DNA of 64,000 nucleotides from Calliopum simillimum (taxonomy: Eukaryota > Arthropoda > Insecta > Diptera > Lauxaniidae): the NCBI GenBank assembly GCA_951812925.1, contig OX638370.1:110932897-110996896 (forward strand), written 5' to 3'. This document shows, one piece after another, positions 54 through 38,785 of this stretch. Numbering within the stretch: the stretch's first letter is position 1; each line of letters starts with the position of its first letter. Under the pieces are notes generated by a model. That model saw only the letters and a program-made list of their open reading frames with translations. It did not search any database and was not told the DNA's origin. A program made the position numbers and the translations under genes.

Positions 54-3000
54 AAAGCACTGCAGAAGCAACAAATGCAGACAGAAATGGTCATCAACAC
101 TGCGCCACAGAAGAAAAAGTTTCAAGTAGCAAAGAACCTAAAGAGTAAGTCAGAAAAGTGGGTTAATTTTCCGTTTTTTGGTTTTAACGTTGCTTCGTCG
201 TCCCTTGGGAAAACCAGGACTTGAAGACTTATTTGGCCAAGTCAAAGACTTATAACGCCATCACTAATTACACTTCCATTTTGGAAATTAATATTTCAAA
301 TTTATAGTTTTTGCAATTTCTTTGTTTAATTTTATTTTTTGTCCCTACTGTACATTTCACAACCTTGAAAAAGGCATATGAAACGATTCTGACGCTAAAA
401 CCAAGATAAAGTCCGAAATATCCTATTCTTAAAATTTAAAAATTTTGAAAAAACAGGTTTGGAGACTACAAAATTTTACTGCTCTTTTATACTTACTGAA
501 TGACTTCCAGCGAAAATAAATCACATTATTAAGAATCTCTATACATCACTAAATCATGTCTTATGTACATGAGTCCCAAATTTGTAGTTTGATGGTCTTT
601 GCTACATATTTAAATCTCAGCACTCATTTTTAATATATTGTTTTCATTTATTATTCAGACTCGACCTTCCACTATTAGAAAACGTTGAAGAACTATGTCC
701 TGTTACTTGGAAAGAATTTCGAAAATACACCAATGTCACAGACTTAGTCATTGAGGATACCAAGAGAGCAAAACCGAATACTTATGAAGAGCGCATAAGA
801 AATGAAAAATATTTGACTGATATGATACAAAAATTTTATTTAATATTCTATACACAACCAAAGTATCGACAAGCACGTCCCATAACCTATTTGAAATTGC
901 TAAAGGAATGCCCGCTAGATGTTAAAAACTGCATTTATAGCATACCAGAAGCTTTTCAAAAAAAGAAAAAGCACAAACATAAAAAAAAGGATAAAAGAGA
1001 TGCTACAAACGAATCAAAAACAACCAACACTGATAATGAAAGTAATATAAATCATAGTGAAGATTTGATAAATCCTAAACCAGCCTCGAGTAAAAGGTAC
1101 TTGCATAGATCATTGGATAAATGCAACTAATCAAGTTTGTCCATATTTTTCTTTTATAGTGCAAAATCAACGCAAAAGTCACCAACTAAAGATTTTAATG
1201 AGGAAAATTCAATTTCATATCCAGTAACATTAAAAGAATTTAAAAAACATGTTAATTTTGACGAGGACTTTGATCATTATTTATTAAAGTTAAGCAAAGG
1301 AGATGATAAGAAATTTGAAGAACTTCGTCTAAAGAAGATTTTGCGCTTAGAGCACGGTGAAACATTTTATAAGAAGTTTTATGCAATGCCATGCGTACGG
1401 CATAAATTAAAATTTAAATTCAAATCATGTCCACAATCAATTAAAGATAAAATATTATTAAGGGCATCTTATGATACAAAAACGAGTCAAACATGTGGTA
1501 TGTTTTCCTTCTATTTTTATTGTATAATGCCCCGGACGGACGACAGCTTAAATCTATATTATAGACGTAATAATGCGAATCTTTTTATTGCATGATTTTA
1601 GACATTTTTAAACACATATTTCATAGGCATTGACTAAAAGCAAATTTCCCACATTATTGCGTCTGTAATGTGCATTAGAGCTGCCGTCTGTCTGGGGCAT
1701 TAGACAGATTTCCTAAGCGTCAGTTGCTTGCAAAGCAAAAAATGTTGCATAATTTTAGGTCTTTTACTATATATTTTTAAAGAGCAAAGTTTATAAAAAG
1801 CATCAACTTTGTTATTGATGTGCTGAGTAATATGCATTATGTTCGGCATTATGAAATGCAAAAATATTGCAGCAAAAAAATAAGCTCCTAAACTTATGCA
1901 AAATTTTTTTAAGAAAATGCTGTATCAAAACAAAACAACTGATGTTTAGGAAGAAACCCTAAATTTATTTCTTTTAATAAAATAGAAAAGTCGAATGCAA
2001 ATGCCAGTAAAAATTCAGAAACCGACAACTTTAAGAAAGGAGATAACAGCAATGAGGAGAATCAATTTGAAAAAATGTAAGCATAACGTATTTAATTTTA
2101 ATATTTTGATTTTTTCCATAATATTGAGCACTCAACAATATATTGATTTGCGTTCTTAATTTTTTTGCAGTATACAACTACCTGACGTAGACAATGAAGC
2201 GAAAAAGCGATTTCCCATTACTTTTAGTGTGTTTTTAGAACACACAAATGTACTCGATATTATCGATCAAGAAATATCTCAAAGCAAGCAAAGCGATATC
2301 CATTGCATGCAAAAACTTGCAAACAAATTTTTTATAGCTTTCTACACCAAACCTGAGCTTCGAAACAGTAAACCGCTTAAAGCACTCAAATGTTCACAGT
2401 CTATACAAAATATAATGTTTGAAATTCCCTCAAAATATCAAGTTAATGAATTGCCTGAAAATGATCATGATGAAGGCGCCGAAACATGTAGCAAAACAAG
2501 TAAGGAAACTGATACGAATATTGCAGTAACAATGCACGAGGCAAACATAGCTCAGAACCAAGCTGATGGTATGCTAACAATTTATCACTATAAAATGTTA
2601 ACCAACTAACTATTTCTAGATCCTCATCGAGTCGACAATTTACCAACAACAAGTTGTGACAATTTGATGAAGCTGTTCAAAAAATATCTGAATTGTGATG
2701 AAATTATTGATGAAATTTTTAAGGAAGCTGCTAAAAATAATTCAGAAATATTTAAAAAATTACAAAATGATAAAGTCTTGCGCGCGAGAGCACTACGCAA
2801 TTATTACGAAGCGTTCTACAAAAAACCAGAAATACGCCAACGTTATAAAGTTAGAATGAAGCCATGTTCATCGAGTATAAGAAAATTGATTTTACAAATA
2901 CCAGGGAAAGATTGCTTCAGCGTTGGTAAATCAAACTTATTAAATTGTTTCAATCAATACATTTATAATTGGCTTTATTATAAGGTAATTCAAGTCAACA

Positions 3001-6000
3001 ACTTAAACGTTCCGTAGCTGAAGTTGAAAATGATCCTGAGGAAAAACTACAATCGAAAAAGCAACGAATTTTGGAAACTGAAGTAAATGTGGACAGTCCT
3101 ATGACAAATGTAAATCAAAGTGTCACACACATTAAAGAAAGACAATCTGAAAGCCAACACATTCCAACCAATTTAAAAAGTCCTCATGTTAATATGCAAA
3201 ATAGTAATGCGAAAAATTTACACTTTAGCGATTATGCAGCTAACTTAAGTGAAGATTTTTTTAAAAAATACTTAACCCGAAAGTCGTTAGATTGCTATAC
3301 TGAACAAATGACACCGCTGTTATTGCAACGTATTAAAGAAAAAGTTTTAAAAGCGAAACCTCTTACGGTTGAACCGTCAGCGAAAGCGAAAATTCACATA
3401 AAATCTGTTGAAATGATTAAGCCACCAGATACGAATTTTAAAACTTCAAAAAAGGTTAGTCTGCTTGATAATAGCTTGTTCAAAACAGATATATAACATT
3501 TTTGTTATTTATGTATAAACTTATGTACGTACTATAAAAATATTTCAATTCTTAATTTTTCAGCGCTTTACACTCGCTTATGCTGCCTATTTAAGTGTAG
3601 GTCTTAAACAACGCATACTATTTGCCGTATTAGATATGAGTTTCGATGAGTTTCAAAAATATACTCGCATACATAGTGACGCAGAGTTTAATGAAAATGA
3701 ACACACATTACAATTATACAACAGTGCTATTGCAGTTGAAAAATTGTGGCATCCACGCTTATACATGAGTTTGCTAGACTTACAAGAGTATTTAACAACT
3801 AAAGGAATACGAATCAGCGATATCGATTTTAAGCATATTTCACCGATAATTTTAAATCGTGAAGAAATTTCATTAATAACAAACTTTGATGATATTGTAT
3901 GCTTGGATTACTTTAAAGAAACAGCGAAAAGACTAAAAGATGAGGAAAGTTTACTTAGCGAGAGACGAATACATTTTTATAATAAATGCAAAAGCCATAA
4001 TCAGTGGTTATGGAAGACACCAGTTCTTGAATCAGTAAGCAAATAATTTGTTAATGTTCTATTTAAACACTTAGTTTTATAATTTATTTAGAACTGGAAA
4101 ACAATTTTACAGAATAATGCTGCTGAATATATGCCGAAATTAATAGTGTCGCCAAGAAGAAGCGTAGAAAATGATAACTGCATCAAAGAAGCGTCTGCGG
4201 AAGAAAATAATTGTACTACAGGTACATCATAATTAATTTTTTTTTTAAACTGAAGTGATCGATTTATATACATATTTTAGATTCAACACTTGTTTCAAGT
4301 TATGAATCTCAGTGAACATAGTCTTTAATGTTTATATGCTAAATAATCCAATAATCCAATTCCAGTACAAGTGATTTCAAAAATATTTAATTTTAAAGTT
4401 AAGTCTTTTTTCGGAAGCAATAGAAATTTAAAAACTATACTTTCGTCTCAATTTTTTTGCTTTTGTAAGCAGTCTTTATGCTGAGAATATTAAAGACTAT
4501 TCACTGTCTTGCTGTGCTTTTTGTTAAGTGTTCGTTTTAACATATTTCTATCGAACTATTTTACATTCACAACAGCTAATATCAAGAATTTAGAAAATTG
4601 GAAACTATTTACACATTTTCAAGGATACCCTTATGAAAACGATGATATTGAAACTGTGTTTTATCCACTTGATAATAAATCATATATAGTGGAAGATCAT
4701 CGTTTCGTAAGTGATTCTGAGCAAGTACAATGTTTTTGTTCGAAAATGTCTACGTTCACTGAAACTGTAGAGGCATCTCAAGAAACAGTAATTTTTCCTC
4801 TTACGCGAAAATTATCCCCTACGAACAAACTAAATTCAATATCTAAAAGAAATATAGGCAATACTGATGATAAAGGTAACACAACACACTACACTACACT
4901 TCATTTTTGTCTGTAGGCAATAAGGCTCAAGAAAATATTTCCAAATCAACTCCAGAACAAAACAAAGCCTTCAAAACAAAAAAATATCGCAAAGGGTTAA
5001 AACAAATATGTACATATGTATTTCATACTCATGTCTCAAATTTTTTGAAAATATTTACTTTCTTTTTTGATGATATTTTCGTGTGCGCTATTGTCTACAT
5101 GCTAGGGTGACACTTAAAATACCCGTTCCTGTGCGGTCCCCTCAACAGACTCTAAACAAATAAAACAAAAAAAAAAAATCCTCTGAGAATTTCAGCCCTT
5201 TACCTCATTTCTAAAGCGCAACCCAAGAGTCTTGTATTTTCCTATATTATGCGGATTTTCATTAAAAAAATTGTATCAAGTAAATCAATCAATCCCTGTC
5301 ATGTCACTAAAAATTTTATAAATATCAATAATGGGCTTTGTCATAAATAAACATTCCCAATATTTTCCCAGATTCTAATATGCAATCAGCTATATATATT
5401 AATCGCATTTTGAGTCCTTTAATGTGGTGGCGCGTCAAAAATTCCGGAAAAGTGTTTGAAGTGTCACCCTAATACATACTAACATCATTCATAATTTTTG
5501 GAAACATTTATACTATGTCTATTGAATTGTACGAGAGAGTCTTAAGACCTTTGAGAATATAGTATCCTCAGTGTTTTCCGATGCAAATCTTTCTTGAAAT
5601 GTTTGACATTTTTTAGAATAAATTTCTTCAGGCCTTATCTTTCAGTTCCATTGTAACATTGTTTTATTGGCGTAAAAAAACGCCCAAAATCAAAAACAAA
5701 ATAACGCCGAAACTATTTTCATATAAATTTGGGCGGCAATAACACCTAAAATTTGGGCATTATTTCGTTTTTTTGGTGATATTTCGTTTTTTTTTTTAAC
5801 TAAATAATAATAATAAAATACGCTCAAATTATGTACATATAAATAAATTTTGGGCGTTATTTCCAAAATGATTATCGCCCAAATTTATATGAAAATAATT
5901 TGGGTGTTATTTCGTTTTTGTTTTTGGGCGTTATTTCATTCTTGTTTCGGGCGTTATTTCATACTTTTTGGGCGTTATTTCGTTTTTATTTTGAGCGTTA

Positions 6001-9000
6001 TTGCGTCATTTGATTTTTTGGGGGATATATCGTTTAAAAAAAAAAATCGAAATAATGCTCAAAAAAACGAAATAAACCGAAATTTTTTCGACGTTATTTC
6101 CAAAATGATTTTTTGGACGTTATTTCGTTTTTGTTTTGGGTGTTATTTCGTTTTTATTTTGGGCCCTATTACGTATTTTTATTTTTTGGGCTTATTTCGA
6201 TTTTTTTCCTACCCCTGCGGGTAAGGGGTCAGAATATGCCCGAGGTAAGCATGCCTGTCGTAAGAGGCGAGTAAAAGCGGGTGACCAGCCAGGGTGTGGA
6301 AGGGCGTAGCGTTGGACAGCGTTGCGCCTTGAAAGAAAACCCACAATGCCCGTAACTGGCACTGACAAGGCGAGTCGATGCCGCCTTAAAATAAGCATCT
6401 TGTCAAAATCCTGAAGCGTCTGACCCAGAGTGGGCGGCTGAAATTAAAAGTGAATTTGGCCACTATATTTGCAGCGCTTGCCGGATCCAGCTTTAAGCTT
6501 ATAACTTACTTCGTGGGGCGTTGCCGAGAAGATTATACTAATGAAGCATGGATCGAAAAACGATGGAAAATAACTCTCCAAGTGGTACCCACCAGAGTGT
6601 GGTTAATCCACCTGCCTCGGCAGCATGCACATCGGATTTGGAGCAAGAAACATGCATAGTTAGGAATGATTCTCCCATAACTGGAACCAATATGGTTTCT
6701 CAAAATTTTAAAATCCTTCCGATGAAAACTCGAACACGCATCGGCTCTTGGAATGTCCGAACTCTAAATGAACCAGGCAAAATACACCAAGCCGTTAGAG
6801 AACTCCACAAATTAAATAAAGGAGGAAACATACATACATTTCGATTTTTTTGGTCACCAAATTTATATGAAAATAATTTGGGCGTTTTTTTTGTTTTTGG
6901 GCGCTATTTCATTGGGCGTTATTACGTATTATTATTTTTTGGGTTCATTTGGTTTTTTTTTAAACAAAATAACGCCAAAAAAAATATTAAATTTTGGTAA
7001 TTTTTCCGCGGACAACGATTTACATCACCCGAAGAAGCGGTTGAGGCGTTTAAAACTCATGCTATCAGAGCTATCTTCTTCGGGCTAGTCAAAGTGCTTG
7101 GACAAATGGTCTAAGCGCATAATGTCTGAAGAAACATACCCTAATAAATGTCAAACTTTTCAACTGTAATAAAAATTTACATTGGAAAACACTATATATT
7201 CGCTAAAAGGTATAAGTTTTCCCAAGAGCTGATATTTCATTGATATTAATTCTTCGAGAACGCAGATATCAGACAAAAGTTGGAGGGAATCAAAGACAGT
7301 TACAATTCACCGTGCATAATGAAGAAATTTTATGCATACCCTATGCTTCGAAAGATGATAAAGAACACAAAAAGACAGAAAATATAATAGTTTTTCTAAA
7401 CAAATAAATTTTTTAATTAGTTATGTTAAAATCTAATGAAACTTATTTTATACTATATTTTGGAAAAGATTTTTAAATTAAATAGATATATAATTATATT
7501 TGTAGATGATAATATAGATGAAAACAATGCAACCCGTGATAATGTTTTTCAATCTGAAGCTACATCTATAGGAATTTATCAAAATTTAGAAACTGGTAAA
7601 TCAATCAAATTTTATTTCACAAAAGTAATAACGGAATCTCTTACTTAGCTACGCAAGCTCCAGAACCTAGTGGCATTGAAACTCTGTCAATTATCGCTGA
7701 AAAGTCTACACAAAATCTTTTAGCATGGAGTAGCGGTTCAGCTGAAAAAGAAGAAAACTTGGACCTAAGTAAATTTATTTATTTATACATATTTTTTTCT
7801 TTATTGAACTAATGAAAAATAAATTTTATTACAAAGCTGTTACGAGTCGCAAATTGAATGATGTACCTAATCAAGTCACAGCCAAGAATGTATCAGACGA
7901 TATTTTTTTACCAAGCAGTAATGAATCGATTGGGCAACATATTGCCGCCGTGCGAGTTTCACAAGATGTTTTACTTTCAAGTGCATCGTCTGAAATTAGT
8001 CATTCGCAATCGGCAATAGATTTATATTATTCTCATCTTGTAAAAACACCTTCAAAACTTACGCCAACTCTAGCAAATAAAGTAGAAAACCAGCCAAGAA
8101 GTTCTTCAAGTAAACAAACACAATTTCCTGCAACTAATACGAAACCTAAAACTACAATACCATTGTCACCAAATATTTTTACATCAAGTGGTTCAACTAA
8201 TTCACAACCTCAAAGTCAAAATTTAGCACAAGAAAAGACTATAGTTGCTTGTTTAAATGAATTACATGATAATGCCGAGACTTCTACACACTATAATGTT
8301 AATGGTGAATTTTTTATCAGCATGCCAAATACACAAACTCAGATTCAATCGTTGCCTTCAGATGAGCATTTAAATTTCGATCCATTGAGCGATGTACTTG
8401 AACAGCAAATGAAAGAGCTGTTTGAAGGAGAAGATGAAACGACCGCAGGTATTTATAGATACAATTTTCCGCATGCTAAAAGTATTGCTAAAATATTTAA
8501 TTTTTTAAAGTTCTATATGAAGATGTATTATCAAAGCAAAGTACACAGGACGTACTTAATCGTTTACAAAATGACGCCATTGAGGGTACGTATGTCAAGA
8601 TAATTTTTAAGGCATTTATTGCTGCGATAGTATTGTTAAAGTGAACGTAACTATTCAATGAATTATATGTATAAATTAAAATGCATAAATTTTACTCTTT
8701 TCATCAGGCACATCCAATGATGTAAATACATATGTACTTCTTGAGAATAATGAGAGAGAACCAGCATTGTTACCAGTACTAGAAGATATCAATAACACTG
8801 GTAAGAATTAAGAATATAATAATCGCTTATTCAGGAAAATTGTGAGCTCATAGTCTTTCAGAATAAGTAATTGGATTTATTTTTTAAAAATCAAATGGAT
8901 TATATTATTTTAGCACTAAACAATAACTTTCCTACGGATGCTAATAACAAAATTGTAGAAAAGCAAATTGCTGAAAATTTAACAGAAACTCCAGCAGTAT

Positions 9001-12000
9001 CGTTACATTTACATACGTCCACAGAATTACTTGCTGATGAGACCAACGAAAATACTGGTAAATTTTATTTGTTGTAGTTTTCAAAAAAGTCATATATTTT
9101 ATTTGAAATTGAATTCATTATTTTAGTGCAAAACAGCAGAAATTTGGAAGACGTGGTCAATATCGAGAGTACAATAAGTTTACCGTCTGAAACAGCAGTA
9201 TCAACTCTTGTTGTGTCAAATGTAAATTCAGTACAGCCTATAGAAACAATTTGTACATCAGCTGCAGAAGACTTACAACATTTTCCTGTCGCCGATACGC
9301 AATCTACAGGTAAGTTAAAAATTTCTAACATTTTATACAGCATCTATATCCCGTACCAAAATTCAATGTGCGAGTATAAACTTATCACAAAAGTTAACAA
9401 TTCAAAATCTTTTGTGCTTAAATTTCAGGAAATAATCAAACTGAGGCCGTGTCAAATACAATAAACTTACCATCTGAAACATCGCCAAATGTAAGATCAA
9501 TGGAAGCGAAAGAAACAAATTCTTCAAAAGCTGTAGAGAACTCAGAACAATTATTCGTTGACAATACGCATACATCAGGTACACTTACAAATTACATTCA
9601 ACACGAAGCTTTCGCAATTTTGACATATTCGCCTTATTATTCATTTGAACTATAAGTTTTTCTATTTTATTTATATGTGTTATATTGTTATTATAAAAAA
9701 AACATGTCCAAAATATATGGGGCCCTATTATAAATTTATCGAGCGACTCCCTCTATTGAATTTAGTCCCTTCTCGAGAGGGAGCATTTGCAATCGTAAAT
9801 ATTTCGAGAATGGAAATTCGCCTTTCAGCAGTGGTACTTGGTTTCAATTTTCTTTTAATTTTCGCCAACAAACAACTATGCAACCCTGGTTTTTGCCATT
9901 TGATTTTGACAGCTAAGGTTAAAAAAAAAATAAAAAAAAATATAAAGGGTTATCGTGAATAAAGATTCCCGGGGAATTTTTCTGAGACTGCCGTGCATTT
10001 TCCATTGCATAACCCTTTATATTTTTTTTTTTTTAACCTTAGCTGTCAAAATCAAATGGCAAAAACCAGGGTTGCATAGTTGTTTGTTGGCGAAAATTAA
10101 AAGAAAATTGGAGTACCAAGTACTGCTGAAAGGCGAATTTCCATTCTCGAAATATTTACGATTGCAAATGCTTCCTCTCGGGAAGGGATTATCTTTATCC
10201 ACGATAACCCCCATAAACATCTATATTTCATTAAAAACAAGCAAAACAAAGTACAATAAAATTACAAAATTGTGGAAGGCGATAAAAAAAAAACTACGAG
10301 TTTGTCTGAACTATTTCCAAACCTTCACACTTTTCGTTCTTTTAAATAAATTAATTTAATCCAATAACTTTCCCATTAATCTTTAGATGTCGCCATTAAG
10401 AAGGAAGCTGGACTACCAAATAGATTGCAGTTTTTATTAAACGATTCAGAAATTCAGATAATCGAAACAAATGAACCCAGTCCGATTATAATAAGTGATG
10501 ACGATGATGATGATGGTAATAATGAAAATAAAACGGAAATTCAACCAAAAATTGGTATGCAGTTGCTTACTAATTAACCAGCAATTATTTTCAATTTCAC
10601 ATTTGTTAAATTTTAGCCGGTGACGGAATTAAACAAGAAATTAAATTCTTGGATAAATTACAATTCACTATGGATGACTCAGATAGTACCCCGCAAATTT
10701 GTCCCTTGGAACCATCACCATTCATTGTGCTAGATGATGATGATGACTGCAGTACAGCTTTAATTGAACAACTAATGAATCCAGTAGATGAAACTACCGA
10801 TAAAAGTGTGGGAATTAGTAGAATTTCATCTGCAATTAGTGATGAAACTGGCACATTCTGTGAAGCACAAAAAATACCCAGTTCTATTGAAGAAAATGAG
10901 ACAATACTAGGAAATCAACAACAGCAACAGATTACTGATAGTGATGACATTGAATCTGTACAAACTGTTGAAAATATTTGTGAAGTACCTGCAAATTCGG
11001 ACAACATTGAATCCATTTTAGCAACCAATAATGACCACGATAGTCAGCAAAACGTTCAAGTATTTGCAGACAGAAGTAATTCTTTACAGAGCTCAGAAGA
11101 ATTAGTTTATGAATTCTACATACCATCGACCGAAATTGATTTTAATTACGCTGAACACATAGGGATAGCTGGAACTATAGAGTTACCTGAACAGGAATGC
11201 GTAAGCGTAGACAATGGGTTACAAAAAGTAAATATTGATACAACTGCGGAACCTCAAGTATCAACAGTCGATAATTGTGACACTGCAAAAGAATACAGTA
11301 GTAACATGCATAACATTGCCTTGCCAAACATAAATGTTTTTTCTTCAAATATAACACAAAGAAAAAGACCAACTTCAGCAAAACGAAAGCAAACAAAAAA
11401 CACTGATATTGTACCACAAATATTGCATTCGTTTCGGCCACTTGAAATATGTCCAGTTACTAAAGCACATGAAAATCAAAGACAAAACCAAACATCTGAT
11501 GTCAGCGATGAACAAGAAGACACTGCAACACCACCATCTCAAGTAATCACAACTGAAAGAAAAAGTGTTATAAGTAGCAGTGATGCTACTAAAAGTTTTT
11601 CAGCTTCACAAGCGCTTGCTACAGATTGCACACTATTCAATAATACAGAACTTTTAAGAGACTTACAACAGTTACAGAACAAAGCACCGGAAGAAATAAG
11701 TTCAGTTAATGTGCAGGCCACTTCTTCGACTTGTTCGCTTGCTTCAACCGTGAGTGCTACATCAACTGCCTCAGAACAGGTAAATCAAATTCAATCAAGA
11801 CATAAGACAATATTTTATCGATATATTAGTGAATTTCATTTTTTTGATGCATTAACTGAAACGCACATTGCTCAATATGTATTGCCTGATTTATTAGCAA
11901 TTGGGCAACAGTATATGCAGGCCCAAGTGAAAAGCCGGCATAAGTTTAATTTATATGGTGACTTTTTGAAAGGAATCTTTCCATATTTTTCCCAAGCTAA

Positions 12001-12307
12001 TATAAATGATTTACGTTTCTTGCTTGACGATTTGAAAGAATATCATTTTCGTGCTTTTCAAGAAAATATGATTACTGCACCAGCTGCAGATTTACGTGAA
12101 CGCACACTTTTCTATTTGTTTCGTTTTTCACCAGTTACTTGCTTTTGCCATATTAAATTTGATTGTAACTCATGTGAAAATGGCAGAGTTACGCTGTCAT
12201 ATGCAAGACACATATCACGGCAGCCGCATAAACCGTTAATAGAGGCTATTAAACCTAAAATTTTGGAAAAAATTTCACTTTTAAAATCAAAATTATCAGA
12301 AATTTGA
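54..12307 (+). CDS. Large repeat-domain protein with two SUMO-interacting-type motifs; multi-exon, 5'-truncated, family not recognised
   Basis: I do not recognise this protein. Exons joined by GT-AG sites with matching phase: 54-144, 659-1096, 1160-1497, 1986-2076, 2171-2568, 2620-2925, 2985-3454, 3564-4034, 4092-4221, a short one from 4281, 4576-4875, 4917 to about 5000, perhaps one near 7260-7390, then 7506-7595, 7649-7768, 7837-8448, 8511-8585, 8708-8800, 8914-9057, 9127-9309, 9429-9578, 10387-10554 and 10617-12307. The window opens inside an intron, so the start is missing; about 2,100 residues are visible. Order: four related 80-95 residue domains, a divergent helical block, a long Ser/Thr/Asn/Glu-rich linker, two SIM-like motifs, a basic patch (RKRPTSAKRK, near 11360) and a C-terminal region with a Cys cluster. 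No signal peptide or membrane segment is visible. The basic patches and SIMs suggest a nuclear protein; that is inference. Least certain: the joins around 4281-4576 and 5000-7506. It could be two genes, but phase continuity argues for one. Confidence 0.72.
659..2925 (+). other. Four tandem copies of an unrecognised 80-95 residue domain
   Basis: The exons at 659-1096, 1160-1497, 2171-2568 and 2620-2925 each encode one copy. Shared pattern: an opening Pro-(Val/Ile)-Thr-x-x-x-Phe or equivalent, a Tyr/His-(Thr/Leu)-Asn element, a charged helix, then an aromatic core of the type FYxxFYxxPxxR (FYLIFYTQPKYR, FYKKFYAMPCVR, FFIAFYTKPELR, YYEAFYKKPEIR), and finally a Lys-x-Cys-x-x-(Ser/Asp)-(Ile/Val) turn leading into a hydrophobic helix ending in Ile-Pro. 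Roughly one domain per exon suggests growth by exon duplication. Copy 1 is followed by a very basic Lys/His run near 955-1000. The exon at 3564-4034 starts with a similar Phe-x-x-x-Phe-x-Lys-Tyr-Thr element and may hold a diverged copy. Confidence 0.7.
3564..4221 (+). other. Divergent helical block of the large repeat protein
   Basis: Two phase-0-joined exons (3564-4034 and 4092-4221) encode a well-folded-looking stretch rich in Leu, Ile, Tyr and Trp, unlike the acidic low-complexity linker further on. It opens with an EFQKYT element like the start of the upstream domains but lacks the FYxxFYxxPxxR core; a weak equivalent may be the LWHPRLYMSL segment. It could be a degenerate fifth repeat or a separate domain. 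Function unknown. Confidence 0.55.
5660..6205. repeat. Minisatellite with GGGCGTTATTTCG units
   Basis: About 20 degenerate units of 25-35 bases built around GGGCGTTATTTCG plus T-rich spacer, some inverted: the arm around 5716-5736 is mirrored at 5876-5899. It lies in the long intron between the exon at about 4917-5000 and the one at 7506. The array resumes at 6840-6990 after a retrotransposon fragment. Confidence 0.75.
6208..6830 (+). mobile_element. 5' fragment of an RTE-like non-LTR retrotransposon
   Basis: GC-richer than its surroundings. A reading frame from about 6548 runs into IGSWNVRTLNEPGK (near 6740-6782), the opening strand of the apurinic-type endonuclease domain in RTE-like LINEs; the Asn after Trp is the usual first active-site residue. 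The sequence stops right after it, so the rest of the endonuclease and all of the reverse transcriptase are missing. The upstream 340 bases look like a LINE 5' untranslated region. Minisatellite flanks both sides. Truncation at the 3' end is unusual for target-primed insertion and suggests later deletion. Confidence 0.6.
6840..6990. repeat. Continuation of the GGGCGTTATTTCG minisatellite
   Basis: Units matching the array at 5660-6205 reappear immediately after the RTE fragment, including the shared CCAAATTTATATGAAAATAA stretch. The RTE piece therefore interrupts one array. Confidence 0.65.
7012..7170 (+). mobile_element. C-terminal remnant of a mariner-type transposase
   Basis: One frame reads FTSPEEAVEAFKTHAI and, after a frameshift, a SQSAWTNGL-like piece. 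This resembles the C-terminal tail of mariner transposases (SPEEAVxAF...H followed by a conserved Trp segment). No catalytic core or terminal inverted repeat was found. It lies in an intron of the large repeat gene, just 5' of the possible decayed repeat exon. Confidence 0.45.
7256..7392 (+). other. Possible decayed or partial extra repeat exon
   Basis: One frame reads IRQKLEGIKDSYNSP followed by MKKFYAYPMLRKMIKN. This matches the aromatic core of the four upstream domains (compare FYKKFYAMPCVR in copy 2). The opening Phe-x-x-x-Phe half is not visible and a stop follows almost at once, with no good donor site. It lies just after a mariner remnant, so the exon may have lost its 5' half to insertion. 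Whether it is still spliced in cannot be told from sequence. Confidence 0.4.
9764..10191. repeat. Foldback (hairpin) element in an intron
   Basis: Arms of about 185 bases at 9764-9954 and 10009-10191 are near-perfect inverted copies around a 54-base spacer; the inner ends read ATATAAAGGGTTAT and ATAACCCTTTATAT. A GTTATCGTG(A/G)ATAAAGAT motif occurs in the spacer and, inverted, at the outer right end, so the element may extend to about 10215. It sits between coding exons 9429-9578 and 10387-10554. Paired short ORFs here are mirror artefacts. Confidence 0.8.
10482..10750 (+). other. Two SUMO-interacting-type motifs in adjacent exons
   Basis: At 10482-10515 the protein reads PIIISDDDDDD and at 10721-10750 FIVLDDDDDC. 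Both fit the classical SIM layout: four hydrophobic residues with beta-branched Ile/Val, followed by a run of acidic residues. They sit in consecutive exons about 70 residues apart in the spliced protein. Known SIMs of this layout bind the groove of SUMO; paired SIMs often favour poly-SUMO chains. Binding by this protein is inferred only. Confidence 0.6.
11790..12307 (+). other. C-terminal conserved-looking region with Cys cluster
   Basis: The last 170 residues change from low complexity to a globular composition rich in Phe, Tyr, Leu and His. Near 12140-12175 a C-x-C-x5-C-x2-C cluster (CFCHIKFDCNSC) could bind zinc. The end is a Lys-rich helix before the stop at 12305-12307. I know no family with this pattern. 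It is probably the functional end domain of the protein, because the reading frame stays open for 550 codons without decay. Confidence 0.5.
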
Positions 12308-14679: not shown

Positions 14680-15972
14680 ATGAACCAAGAAGTAGACTAC
14701 GGAAGCGACAGCGATCAAAGTGATGAAGATTTTCGTCCAAACAAAGAACCCGGCGTCGATTCTGATGTCGAAAGTGGAAGTGGAGAAGACTCTGCAGAAT
14801 CTGCGGATGACGATAGCTCTGGTTCTGAGGAACAAAATGAAACTGTTAAACGTAGGCAGACAGCGAAAAAATCCAAATCGAGCACTAAAACGAAACCAAC
14901 TAAGAAGTCTGTGGATACGGAAGAGCAAAGCACCAGCAGAAGAAGGAGTACTCGTCAGACAGAAGATACTAATGGCGGAGGAAAATTCCGTGCTGATAAA
15001 AAAGAACTGGAATCAGATGATGATGAAAAATCGCGCACAGATGCATTGTGGGCAGATTTTTTAAGTGATGTTAAACCTGCATCTAGCACTAAAGTAAAAG
15101 CGGCGATTCCAACAAACAAAGTAATTAATATTGAGGCCGGAATTTCAGCAAAGGCTGTATCTAACAATGTTACCACCCCGAAAGCAAATGAAAAGCATGT
15201 TGAAAAAATTGCTGAAACTACCTATTCTCCGAAGCAAATTCAAGTGACCGAAATTGTTGATTTTGCGGGTGAAGAAGTGCGCATACAGAAAACTGTAAGC
15301 GCTGATAGCATTAAGGAAAATAAAGCTTCGTCACCACAAAGTCAGTCCAAATCATCATCAAGTTTGACTTCACGTAGTCCAGCAGCAGTGACGAATTATA
15401 GTGGAAATTCCAAACGAATTGCGACATCCGCTGGCTTAGGTTCGATTTTAAATCAACTTGGCAAAAAGAAAAAAATTTCTGTGCTAGAGAAGACTCAACT
15501 TGATTGGAAAAGCTTTAAACAAGATGAAGGCATCGATGAGCAACTACAGACTTTTAACAAGGGAAAAGATGGGTAAGCAAACTAAAGTTTTTCCATATAA
15601 GTGGCAGGCACAAAACATCTTGGAAATATAGTGAACTCTTTTCTACTCGTACATTTAACACCAAATTGAAGTATTTAAGAAATTTGATTTTTGATGACAT
15701 TAAATCAATTTTTTTTCCATTGCAACAACCGAAAATTTGGCGAAAATCACATACATAAATTGAATAACTAAACTTAAACTATGTACATATATGTTTTTGA
15801 TACGGAGAAAGTTGCAGATCTACATATTTGCCTTCTTCCTTTAAAAAGGAATTGTTGTAACTGTATAATCTTTTCTTTCAGATACTTGGAACGTCAGGAC
15901 TTTTTGCAGCGAACTGATCTACGTCAATTCGAGATTGAGAAAGGTTTGCGACAATCAAAGCGGAACAATTAG
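14680..15972 (+). CDS. Yeti: Yeti: BCNT/CFDP1 family chromatin-remodelling protein
   Basis: Two exons, 14680-15572 and 15882-15972 (327 residues), joined by a 309-base phase-2 intron. The C-terminal 80 residues are a classic BCNT-C domain: QLDWKSFKQDEGIDEQLQ, then after the intron YLERQDFLQRTDLRQFEIEKG. The N-terminal half is acidic and Ser-rich, as in the family, with a Lys/Arg patch near residues 65-90. BCNT/CFDP1 proteins (Swc5 in yeast) belong to SRCAP/SWR1-type complexes that exchange histone H2A variants; Drosophila Yeti binds chromatin and interacts with HP1a and Tip60-complex members (known). The start is the ATG at 14680 (MNQEVDYGSDSD), matching the usual acidic family start; no upstream in-frame ATG fits. 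Full length and no visible defect. Confidence 0.93.
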
Positions 15973-28384: not shown

Positions 28385-29405
28385 GGTTCCCTTGTGCCGC
28401 GTTTGGATTGAAATGGATTAAATTTTAACAATCCATTCTGATCCAGTATTTGGTACCAGATTTCTCGGATAGATTTGGATTAAAAATCGAATCAATCCAT
28501 TCAAATTCAGAGAATATAGATTGTTACGAAGGATTGAAATGGACGAAAAAAGACGCAATCTATTTGTCTATCTCAATCCATATTCTGATACAGAATTGGG
28601 TACCAGATTTCTCAGATAGATTTGGATTCAGAATCGGATCAAAGCATTTTAATCCAGGGAATATGGATTGTTGCGAAAGATTGAAATGGTTTCAAATAGA
28701 CGTAGTCTATCAATCTTTTTGGATCCAGATTTTGATCGAGAATTGTGTACCACTCAATATTGATTTGGAAATTTTATGTACGTCGACATTTTTCCAAAAG
28801 CACGAACTACTTCAATTAATATCATCTCTAAAAAGTGCGGCAAGCGCAGACCATGTGCTATGAAAAAATGCGATGAATGCCACGTGAAATATTGCAGGAG
28901 CCAATCGCACGAGGAATCAAAGTCTCACTACAATCCATTTGAATCCTTTTCAGTCCAAGTAAGCACTTGGAAAAAAGCGCGATCAACATCAATCCAGTTA
29001 AGTCCATTTTTAACCCAACAAGATACTCCATGATTTCCAGCAATAACTGGACTTTGCTGATTTGTGATCATCGAGGAGCTAATATTTGGGCCTGAACAAT
29101 ATCGTGGGTTCCTCGCATTGTGGTATGAACTTGGAAAAATGTAAATCCAGTCCAATCCATTTTAATCCAACTGCAGTTATTTAAGTTTATGTAAACCTTT
29201 TTTGTTACTGCACTTTATAAACATCAAGTAAATGCCATTTTTAAAGTGAAAAAATTGAGTTAGAATTAGAGTGAAATAGATTAAAATGGATTAGTATTCA
29301 ATCCAGAAGTTTCGTGGTCTGGATAGTATGAATCCAAATATAATCGAATGGACACTTTCTTTATCCATATTAATCCATTAGAATCTAGACGCGACGTAAG
29401 GGTTG
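28385..29405. repeat. Inverted-terminus repeat element with internal tandem duplication
   Basis: The left end (CCCTTGTGCCGCGTTTGGATT) is mirrored, diverged, near 29380-29405. Inside, a 147-base unit starting GGTACCAGATTTCTC is repeated twice (about 28450 and 28597), and many TGGATT(A/G)AAATGGA boxes occur in both directions. The 137-codon frame at 28450-28863 is a by-product of this duplication. Confidence 0.55.
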
Positions 29406-31775: not shown

Positions 31776-32921
31776 AGGGTGTAAATGATAAGGTTACAAA
31801 GCTTCCGGGAAATAACAAACGACCCTTAGACTAACAAAAAATTGCATCTGGGGGTTCGAAAATGTACTCCTGTGCAGTTAAGGAAAAAAACAAAAAGATT
31901 TTCTGACTTGTTTTACAAAAAAAAAATTTGGGGCACCCTAACGTTTTACAGAAAACTTTTTTATGAAAAACTTTTAGATAATTGCATGAGCTTTCTAAGA
32001 GTGTATTTGGTTTAAAGGGTTTAAAAGGATTTTGTAAAGTTCTAGACCTTTAAAATTGGCATATGTATGCATAAATTTTTTCCAATTTTTTGGGTTTGGC
32101 GGCTCTTTTAGTAAGAAAAAGGTCCTATTAACATACTCTTTTATAATTTTTTTTTTTTGGAATTCTCGTTAAATTTCCTTTGGTAGTGCATTTGTTGCAC
32201 TAATTTTTTGATTTGAGTTCAGAAAAATACTTTTATGTAATAACACATGCGTTTCTCGTATGCGTTGCGCTGCCATTTATTTAGCGGAGAATTCAAACGA
32301 ATTGTTCTTGAAAAGTAATTTTTTCTGACCTCAAATCAAATGAGTGGGATGATAAATGCACTACTAAATTAAATGAAAGTTAGCAAGGATTTCAAAAAAA
32401 TTATAAAAGGGTATATTAATAGGACCTTTTTCATACTAAAAGGGCCGCCAAAGCCAAAAAGTAGGAAAAAAATTGAAAATATCAACTTTAAAAGTCTAGA
32501 ACTTTGCAAAATCGTTTCAAACCTAAAAACCAAATACATTCTTACAAAGCCCATAAAATTAACTAAAAGTTCTCCATAAAGAAGTTTTCTGTAAAACGTC
32601 AGAGTTACCCATTTTTTTTTGTTTTTGTAAAACAAGTCAGAAAACCATTTGTTTTTTTCAGAACTTTGCAAAATCTTTTCAGACCCTTTAAACCAAATAC
32701 ATTCTTGGAAAGCTCATACAATTAGCTAAAGATTTTCCATAAAAAGTTGGCTCTAAAACGTTGGGGTGACCCAAGAAATTTTTTTTTGAAAATAAGTCAG
32801 AAAATCAGTTTTTTTCCTATAACTTCTTAGTGGTATATTTTAGACCCCTGTACAATTTTTTGTTAGCTTAGGACTTCTCTATCACATCCCAGATGTTTCG
32901 TTATCTTATCGTTTACACCCT
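31776..32921. repeat. Foldback element, about 1.15 kb, GGGTGTAAA ends
   Basis: Outer ends AGGGTGTAAATGATAAGGTTA and the mirrored TTATCTTATCGTTTACACCCT. Long diverged arms repeat ACCCTAACGTTTTACAGAAAA-like and AAAAGGTCCTATTAACATA-like segments in opposite directions around a centre near 32240. Frames at 32369-32671 and 32373-32579 are mirror artefacts. A partial relative is at 41840-42310. Confidence 0.75.
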
Positions 32922-34105
32922 GTGTATTGAAATAACGAGGTCAATAACTAAAGTTTGTAGACAACAATTGGGTATACTTAAGTTTTTTTATTTCAAACTA
33001 AGTAGTTACTGAAAATTCAACACCAAGTCACCATGCTTATGCGCCCGTTTCCAAGACATTAACAGTCGTCATATACTTTGAAGACACTTAGTGAAAGTAT
33101 TCTCAATTGACTTTTCGTGAATTTATTTCATTTTATTTATACATTGGCTAAAGTGTTGCAAATACCTTGTTACTAACTTAAATACTTGGCTTATTCAGGT
33201 GTTGCAACAACAAAAGCGTAATAGACAATGAAAGCATTTCTTTGGTATTGATATGGAAAAACAACAACAAAGCAACAACAACAGCAACAATAACAACAGC
33301 GATGGTATAGTTACTCTTTTTGGTTTTATTAAATACATTTGCAAAACCATTTGCGGTATCTTTTTTTTTTTTAAACCAATTGAATATTTTTGCCGATGTC
33401 TGTCTGTCTGTCTCTATTTTTGCCAAATGTGAATGACTTTGTTTCAACTTCACCAAAGTGACTTTCGTTGTTTCATTGTATTTTTCTGTGTTTTTTTTTT
33501 TTATATTTGCATATGTTGTAGTAACATGTCGGTATGTATCTACTCGTATATTGTTGTTATGTTTGTACAATTTTGTTTTGTTGTGTTTTGTGTCTTTATT
33601 TAATCAACGATATCACATGTCTATCGGCATTTTTTTGTCAGTTAAGACTATCTATTAATTAATAACTGTATTTTTGTAAGATTAAAATCTTGCTGTTAAA
33701 TAAATTGTACATATGTATTGGCAACACTTAACCTGTTAAGTCTTGGAATGAATATACTTGAACTTTGCTTCAGGCTCTTATAAGAGTTAATGTCTGGAGA
33801 TCAATCCTTGTTCGGTCGTTAGTCTAATAAATATATTTTATGTAAGTAAAATTTTATTAATTTAATTTTATTTATTTAAAGCTTCTTCAGTTGAATCGAT
33901 TCGTGTCATTTCATCTTAAAATTTTAAATTTAAAATATGCCAGATTAAAAAAATATTTACATATTATACCGTTCGACACTACATTGCACAAATAAAAAAA
34001 ACCAATATATTCTAAAAATATGGCTAAAAATAATTTATATGTGTCTTCCCGATTTTTTGGTTCAGGTCGAATTTTTTTCTTATCGGTCTTTGAAGTTTTC
34101 TATAC
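32922..34105. other. Gene-poor stretch with microsatellites
   Basis: CAA/ACAAC-rich tract at 33255-33300, T-tract at 33360-33373, GTCT repeats near 33398-33415. The frame at 33178-33570 follows these simple repeats and is not a supported gene. Confidence 0.4.
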
Positions 34106-37904: not shown

Positions 37905-38180
37905 AGCACAGAAATATTATGGATCATAGACCATAAAGAACACATCACTGATCATATACAGTGGACCAAAGACTGTAAAGGAAAGATCATAAATCATATA
38001 TAATGGACCATGGTCTACATATAAAGGACAGATTGTAGATCATATATTATGGACCATAGGCCATAAAGAACAGATTATAGATCATATGTTATGGATCATA
38101 GGCCATGCAGAAAAGATCGCAGTTAATATATTATGGACCATAGACCATAAAAGACAGATCATAGACTATAGATTATGAAC
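37905..38180. repeat. Minisatellite, 55-60 base units
   Basis: About five units of the type ATTATGGACCATAGACCATA plus AAGAACAGATCATAGATCAT. The array stops at 38180 and resumes at 38790-38920 beyond an inserted block. Confidence 0.7.
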
Positions 38181-38181
38181 C

Positions 38182-38785
38182 ATCTATATATATAAAAGCG
38201 AATGTTTGTATGTCTGTATAACCCTTATAGACTCTCAAACGGCTGGTCCGATCACTGTGAAAATTAACAAAAAATGTTTCTACTGTTTTCTTTGCATTTC
38301 ATGACTTTTTACGATATTTTAGTGGAAACATTTTTTTTTGGATGTCAGAACCAAAAATTAAAAATTTTTTTTTTCATTTCGCCTTTCCGTGTTCTCTACG
38401 CGTTTCACACCTTTTTCACGACATTTTATTGGAAACATTTTTTTTTTACACAAGGGTCACACAAGGGTCAAAAATTATTTTTGTCATTTATTTTGTGTTT
38501 CCAAAAAAATTAATTTATCATATCTCTGAAAATTTTTAACGGGCATGGATGAGATATGGTACATGTATTAAGAGTATCGGGACAAGTTATGTCGAAGCGA
38601 AAAAAGTGCGGCGCTATGCCCTTAGGAAAATGTCATATCTCTGAAACTATTTAACGCACATAGATAAGATTTGGTACGAATATACTTAAACTGCATCGGG
38701 ACAGTTTACATTCTTTGTTTTAATTTAATTGGAGATACCGCCCTCTGTACAAGAGAAGGTGTAGTAACGCACACACGGAAATGCT
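38182..38785. mobile_element. Block interrupting the minisatellite, unclassified dispersed element
   Basis: Opens TCTATATATATAAAAGCGAA, followed by TGTTTGTATGTCTGT and a CTGGTCCGATCACTGTGAAA-like segment, a layout seen in many insect short dispersed repeats, possibly Helitron-derived. Internal duplication: TTTTAGTGGAAACATTTTTT and TTTTATTGGAAACATTTTTT. It splits the ATGGACCATAG array, so it is younger than the array. Confidence 0.45.

What the first reader, a model, noticed from the sequence alone, without database searches (positions are those of the whole stretch)
659..4221. Unrecognised repeat-domain family in a large, probably nuclear protein
Four exons each encode one copy of an 80-95 residue domain with a FYxxFYxxPxxR core, followed by a divergent helical block. 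I cannot match it to a named domain. Combined with SIM-like motifs and a Cys-cluster C terminus it may be a fly-specific chromatin, telomere or piRNA-type factor.
Basis: partly seen in the sequence, partly recalled or inferred. Interest (0 to 1): 0.75.

Follow-up and report, generated by a model that had tools for sequence, protein, structure and literature searches.

The report
Fly telomere-capping gene tea, four-repeat form
The odd repeats belong to the gene for Tea, a protein already known from Drosophila that guards chromosome ends, found here complete in a different kind of fly and carrying four copies of one of its domains.

Summary
Four exons (659-1096, 1160-1497, 2171-2568, 2620-2925) each carry one copy of an 83-95 residue domain. 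The domain is Pfam PF24236 Tea_helical: 91 bits and four stretches (each E up to 1) on the spliced N-terminal part; three copies pass the curated cut-off alone, the first does not. The "divergent helical block" is PF22889 Tea_mid (E 1e-38) and the C terminus PF22884 Tea_C (E 6e-24). So this is an orthologue of Drosophila tea, the large subunit of the Moi-Tea-Ver complex that binds and protects single-stranded DNA (PMC5105952). Upstream DNA gave exon 1 and a complete 21-exon, 2147-codon frame. The neighbour gene, yeti, puts the fly outside the sampled Drosophilidae, Tephritidae and calyptrates. The 2016 paper knew no Tea outside Drosophila. Smaller new points: a duplicated module with a SUMO-consensus site plus a SUMO-interacting motif, and a PCNA-box-like N terminus. 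Structure prediction never ran, so the fold and role of the repeats are inferred.

The parts
54..144 (+). tea exon 2 (exon 1 lies outside the window, L004:8905-8989, 95 to 11 bases before window base 1)
   Evidence: splice sites and phase
659..1096 (+). tea exon with Tea_helical repeat R1 (675-959)
   Evidence: Pfam PF24236 below cut-off alone (15.7 of 27.1 bits); found by a profile of R2-R4, E 6.7e-11
1160..1497 (+). tea exon with Tea_helical repeat R2 (1200-1475)
   Evidence: PF24236 E 4.7e-8, 33.4 bits
1986..2076 (+). tea linker exon
   Evidence: splice sites and phase
2171..2568 (+). tea exon with Tea_helical repeat R3 (2193-2441)
   Evidence: PF24236 E 1.1e-6, 29.0 bits
2620..2925 (+). 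tea exon with Tea_helical repeat R4 (2640-2915)
   Evidence: PF24236 E 2.4e-12, 47.2 bits
2985..3454 (+). tea exon, basic linker; its last residues begin Tea_mid
   Evidence: no Pfam family alone; Tea_mid match extends into it on the spliced protein
3564..4034 (+). tea exon, Tea_mid domain
   Evidence: PF22889 E 1.3e-38, profile 14-159 of 159
4092..4221 (+). tea exon
   Evidence: splice sites and phase
4576..4875 (+). tea exon, first of ten exons in a row with phase 1 at both ends
   Evidence: no Pfam family (4578-4874)
7506..9578 (+). eight short tea exons of the acidic linker: 7506-7595, 7649-7768, 7837-8448, 8511-8585, 8708-8800, 8914-9057, 9127-9309, 9429-9578
   Evidence: splice sites and phase
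10387..10554 (+). tea exon with SUMO-consensus IKKE (10395-10406) and SIM-like IIISDDDDDD (10485-10514)
10617..12307 (+). last tea exon with stop; second SUMO-consensus IKQE (10628-10639) and SIM-like IVLDDDDD (10724-10747)
11810..12283 (+). Tea_C domain, with the Cys cluster at 12140-12175
   Evidence: PF22884 E 6.3e-24, profile 2-161 of 162

Best explanation
This is the intact tea gene (telomere ends associated) of a schizophoran fly outside Drosophila. It encodes a 2147-residue Tea with four Tea_helical domains, one Tea_mid, a long acidic linker with two SUMO-type modules, and a Tea_C domain. Most likely mechanism: Tea_C joins the two small OB-fold subunits Ver and Moi into the MTV complex; the basic N-terminal repeat array helps Tea reach and hold the chromosome end; together they cover single-stranded terminal DNA regardless of its sequence and so prevent end fusion. 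Shown here: the gene, its domains and their order. Known for D. melanogaster and carried over by orthology: MTV membership, ssDNA protection, and that the C-terminal fragment of Tea is the one that binds Ver with Moi. Inferred only: the part played by the repeats, the SUMO modules and the PCNA-box-like N terminus.
For: All three Pfam Tea families are matched in one reading frame: Tea_helical 91.2 bits with four stretches and Tea_mid 133.9 bits on the spliced N-terminal 978 residues, Tea_C 85.1 bits; mid and C over nearly the whole profile. 2147 codons without a stop over 21 exons, with ATG and an in-frame stop just before it. Genome search with PF24236: 3 matches at E<=0.001, all in this gene (41 of 41 candidates scored). 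D. melanogaster Tea is close to 1900 residues and its C-terminal fragment binds Ver plus Moi; MTV binds and protects ssDNA. The repeat region has pI 9.1, net charge +19 over residues 65-590.
Against: No Drosophila Tea sequence was in hand, so no direct or reciprocal comparison was made; two protein-database searches found no relative although the database holds fly proteins. R1 alone misses the Pfam cut-off. Genome searches for further Tea_mid or Tea_C copies did not complete. A 2021 paper saw Ver-Moi bind ssDNA without Tea and questions a DNA role for Tea (passage). Expression, Ver and Moi in this genome, and the fold were not examined.
Confidence: 0.85

Rival explanations
1. A Tea-derived paralogue that kept the domains but took another job, such as heterochromatin or transposon silencing, while a second Tea caps telomeres.
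For: Function here is carried over by orthology only; the SUMO-type modules would also fit a silencing factor.
Against: PF24236 found no other locus in the 690 Mb genome. All three domains are kept.
Confidence: 0.08
2. An inactive copy: tea domains present but the gene is not expressed or not joined as drawn.
For: Gene model rests on splice rules alone; a large intron (4876-7505) holds tandem repeats.
Against: 2147 codons without a stop across 21 exons in DNA of roughly 30-35% GC, with matching phases throughout.
Confidence: 0.03
3. The repeats are a new, unrelated domain family and the Pfam matches are chance.
For: R1 is below the Pfam cut-off; conservation with the profile centres on the second half of the repeat in R2.
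Against: E 2.4e-12 to 1.1e-6 for three copies alone and 4.4e-26 together, in the same gene as Tea_mid and Tea_C.
Confidence: 0.01

Closest known systems
[quoted passage not shown]
   Same: Tea_helical, Tea_mid and Tea_C Pfam families; similar size (2147 against close to 1900 residues)
   Different: Different fly lineage; four recognisable Tea_helical copies and doubled SUMO-type modules here, number in Drosophila not examined; sequence too far apart for the word-based search to link
CST (Cdc13/Ctc1-Stn1-Ten1) and TPP1-POT1 complexes
   Same: Works like: a large subunit with small OB-fold partners protecting single-stranded ends, as PMC5105952 argues for MTV (abstract passage)
   Different: No homology shown: sequence searches of solved structures with three Tea segments and the repeat profile gave only E 0.05 or worse, none a telomere protein; fold not predicted

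Membership tests
Tea (telomere ends associated) | Tea_helical domain, PF24236 | tested here: met
   R2, R3, R4 above the curated cut-off, R1 not; 91.2 bits together
Tea (telomere ends associated) | Tea_mid domain, PF22889 | tested here: met
   E 1.3e-38, cut-off 27 bits, score 133
Tea (telomere ends associated) | Tea_C domain, PF22884 | tested here: met
   E 6.3e-24, cut-off 27 bits, score 85.1
Tea (telomere ends associated) | Best reciprocal match to Drosophila Tea sequence | not tested
   no Drosophila Tea sequence obtained; two searches returned no relative
Tea (telomere ends associated) | Binds Ver and Moi through the C terminus | not testable with these tools
   known for D. melanogaster
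Tea (telomere ends associated) | Sits at telomeres and prevents end fusion | not testable with these tools
   known for D. melanogaster
CST / TPP1-POT1 | Homology of the large subunit (OB folds) to Ctc1, Cdc13 or TPP1 | tested here: inconclusive

The most novel reading that the evidence does not exclude
Outside Drosophila, Tea carries a four-unit helical array, grown by doubling of a two-unit block, that works as a many-handed grip on the chromosome end, tied to SUMO through doubled consensus-plus-SIM modules and to the replication fork through an N-terminal PCNA-box-like motif. The MTV end-protection system would then be older than Drosophila, with the number of grips varying between flies.
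Probability: 0.2. Interest if true: 0.55.

Novelty: new member of a known kind. Interest (0 to 1): 0.33.

Why it matters
[quoted passage not shown] A complete Tea gene in another fly lineage dates this end-protection protein before Drosophila and offers a natural variant (four repeats, doubled SUMO-type modules) for asking which part of Tea finds the chromosome end. Pfam already names the domains, so the family is not new, and other non-Drosophila members may already be in Pfam; I could not see its member list.

Tried and rejected
Protein-database searches with the repeat-plus-mid region (867 residues; only lengths up to about 1517 could be candidates, shorter than D. melanogaster Tea) and with residues 690-1010 of a 1369-residue piece gave no homologue. 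A control with the neighbour gene yeti gave 450 homologues, with many flies among the 120 listed. So the database holds fly proteins, and Tea was missed through divergence, the word filter or the length limit. That used 3 of 3 searches.

NCBIfam (max E 1) and sequence search of solved structures gave only weak, unrelated matches. A weak WWE_1 match on R1 (E 0.0054, 17.4 bits, cut-off 27) was set aside as chance; for R1 alone it scores above Tea_helical. A fifth repeat was sought in the rest of the window and in the 9.5 kb fetched around the 5' end: none. Exon 8511-8585 has a faint likeness to R4 (z 3.8, 1 of 200 shuffles, one of 210 pairs; E 0.03 in one run), too weak to count. Telomerase_RBD was sought in the genome: none, but none of the 14 control genomes gave it either, so this shows nothing. 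SUMO-consensus sites are not enriched in the whole protein (4 seen, 7.5 expected by shuffling, 285 of 300 shuffles reach 4); only the duplicated pair with SIMs is notable. The PCNA-box-like pattern was chosen after the fact and loosely; it occurs twice in the protein, 0.33 expected, and 6 of 1000 shuffles place one in the first 25 residues.

Full report
Observation. Joining open stretches at GT-AG sites with matching phase gives one frame on the + strand: 20 exons in the window, 54 to 12307, and one more upstream. The four repeat exons are 659-1096, 1160-1497, 2171-2568 and 2620-2925. The repeats are real: in 6 of 6 pairs the alignment score exceeds all 1000 shuffles, and in 4 of 4 leave-one-out runs a profile of three copies finds the fourth at E between 6.7e-11 and 1.9e-15, the best other piece having E 0.03. 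No fifth copy was seen in the window or upstream.

Identity. I suspected Tea from memory; the test was Pfam. R2, R3 and R4 each pass the curated cut-off of PF24236 Tea_helical; R1 does not (15.7 of 27.1 bits). The spliced first 978 in-window residues give 91.2 bits and four stretches, each with E up to 1. The block ending at 4034 is PF22889 Tea_mid (133.9 bits) and the last exon ends in PF22884 Tea_C (85.1 bits), both matched over nearly the whole profile. A search of the whole genome with PF24236 gave 3 matches at E<=0.001, all in this gene; the same was asked for Tea_mid and Tea_C but did not complete.

Completeness. The window cuts the gene. Upstream DNA gives exon 1, L004:8905-8989, coding for MSTRKRNINDYFSPSANKMRR and on, with an in-frame stop two codons before the ATG. 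The complete protein has 2147 residues. D. melanogaster Tea is close to 1900 (PMC5105952 section 8).

Which fly. The next gene, from 14680, is BCNT/yeti (PF07572, E 1.7e-14). Its ten best listed relatives are 52-58% identical, nine of them from named flies such as Ceratitis, Bactrocera, Eurosta and Calliphora. In trees of the window's copy with 33 of the 120 listed proteins, picked by me, the tephritid, calyptrate and drosophilid rows each form a group that leaves the window out (support 100, 99 and 100; 1.000, 0.988 and 0.999); deeper branches are poorly supported. One short protein cannot name the family, so I say only: a schizophoran fly outside these sampled groups. The genome has 690 Mb in 334 contigs.

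How it works. In D. melanogaster loss of Tea causes telomere fusion; of three Tea fragments the C-terminal one binds Ver and Moi, and only when both are present; the three-protein complex binds ssDNA as short as 10 bases without sequence preference, not dsDNA, and shields it from exonuclease I, which Moi-Ver alone did not. Tea reaches telomeres without Moi or Ver (discussion passage). Against a DNA role of Tea stands a 2021 paper in which Ver-Moi bound ssDNA without Tea (passage). The natural reading is that Tea_C is the Ver-Moi dock and that other parts, perhaps the basic repeat array (pI 9.1, net +19 over residues 65-590), give the targeting. That second half is inference.

Anatomy that looks new. 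By alignment score R1 is closest to R3 (120) and R2 to R4 (128), the other pairs scoring 68-101, and a four-tip tree groups them so with support 0.856; percent identities (24-30%) hardly separate the pairs. This fits doubling of a two-unit block but is weak evidence. Exon 10387-10554 and the start of the last exon are duplicates (z 9.9, 0 of 200 shuffles), each with I-K-x-E and an aliphatic-plus-acidic SUMO-interacting motif (the motif definitions are recalled). Exons 9127-9309 and 9429-9578 are also duplicates (z 6.7). Ten exons in a row (4576-10554) have phase 1 at both ends, so they can multiply without breaking the frame. KRNINDYF near the N terminus resembles a PCNA-interacting box with K for Q (recalled); 6 of 1000 shuffles have such a match starting in the first 25 residues, and the pattern was chosen after the fact.

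Literature. A search for the full name and the Pfam names found one paper; a search for the gene number found 8, of which only that one is about Tea by its title (listing). Of PMC5105952 I read the sections on Tea, the interactions and ssDNA binding and passages; of PMC8596017, PMC3650302 and PMC9498494 passages only; the rest are search listings. Searches joining telomere or Tea terms with other flies (15 of 44, 10 of 127 and 1 of 1 papers listed) showed no report of Tea outside Drosophila. The library lacks most subscription journals, and listings were cut, so this is not proof.

Verdict. A good catch by eye with the right guess at the kind of protein, but the domain is named and the gene is an orthologue of a known one. 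New member of a known kind; interest moderate to low.

Noticed in passing
14680-15970, + strand: BCNT/Craniofacial development protein 1 (yeti) gene, two exons, 327 residues as joined, next to tea.
   Followed up: partly
4876-7505: Large tea intron with 23-base tandem arrays (5899-6002, 6111-6205) and an open stretch that by eye recalls a non-LTR retrotransposon endonuclease start (6545-7000); Pfam gave nothing above its cut-off there.
   Followed up: partly
9800-10190: A tea intron that by eye holds a long inverted repeat; not run through the repeat finder.
   Followed up: no
8511-8585: Short tea exon with a faint likeness to repeat R4 (z 3.8, 1 of 200 shuffles, one of 210 pairs), perhaps chance.
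   Followed up: no
33181-33603, - strand: Open stretch with a below-cut-off Pfam match (PF20682, E 0.00079, 19.6 of 28.5 bits), low-complexity and probably chance.
   Followed up: no
16000-64000: Eleven open stretches tested here gave no Pfam family above its cut-off; no tRNA and no Rfam match in the window. Tandem arrays include 147-base units at 28435-28752, 163-base units at 32498-32815 and 42-base units at 37914-38183.
   Followed up: partly
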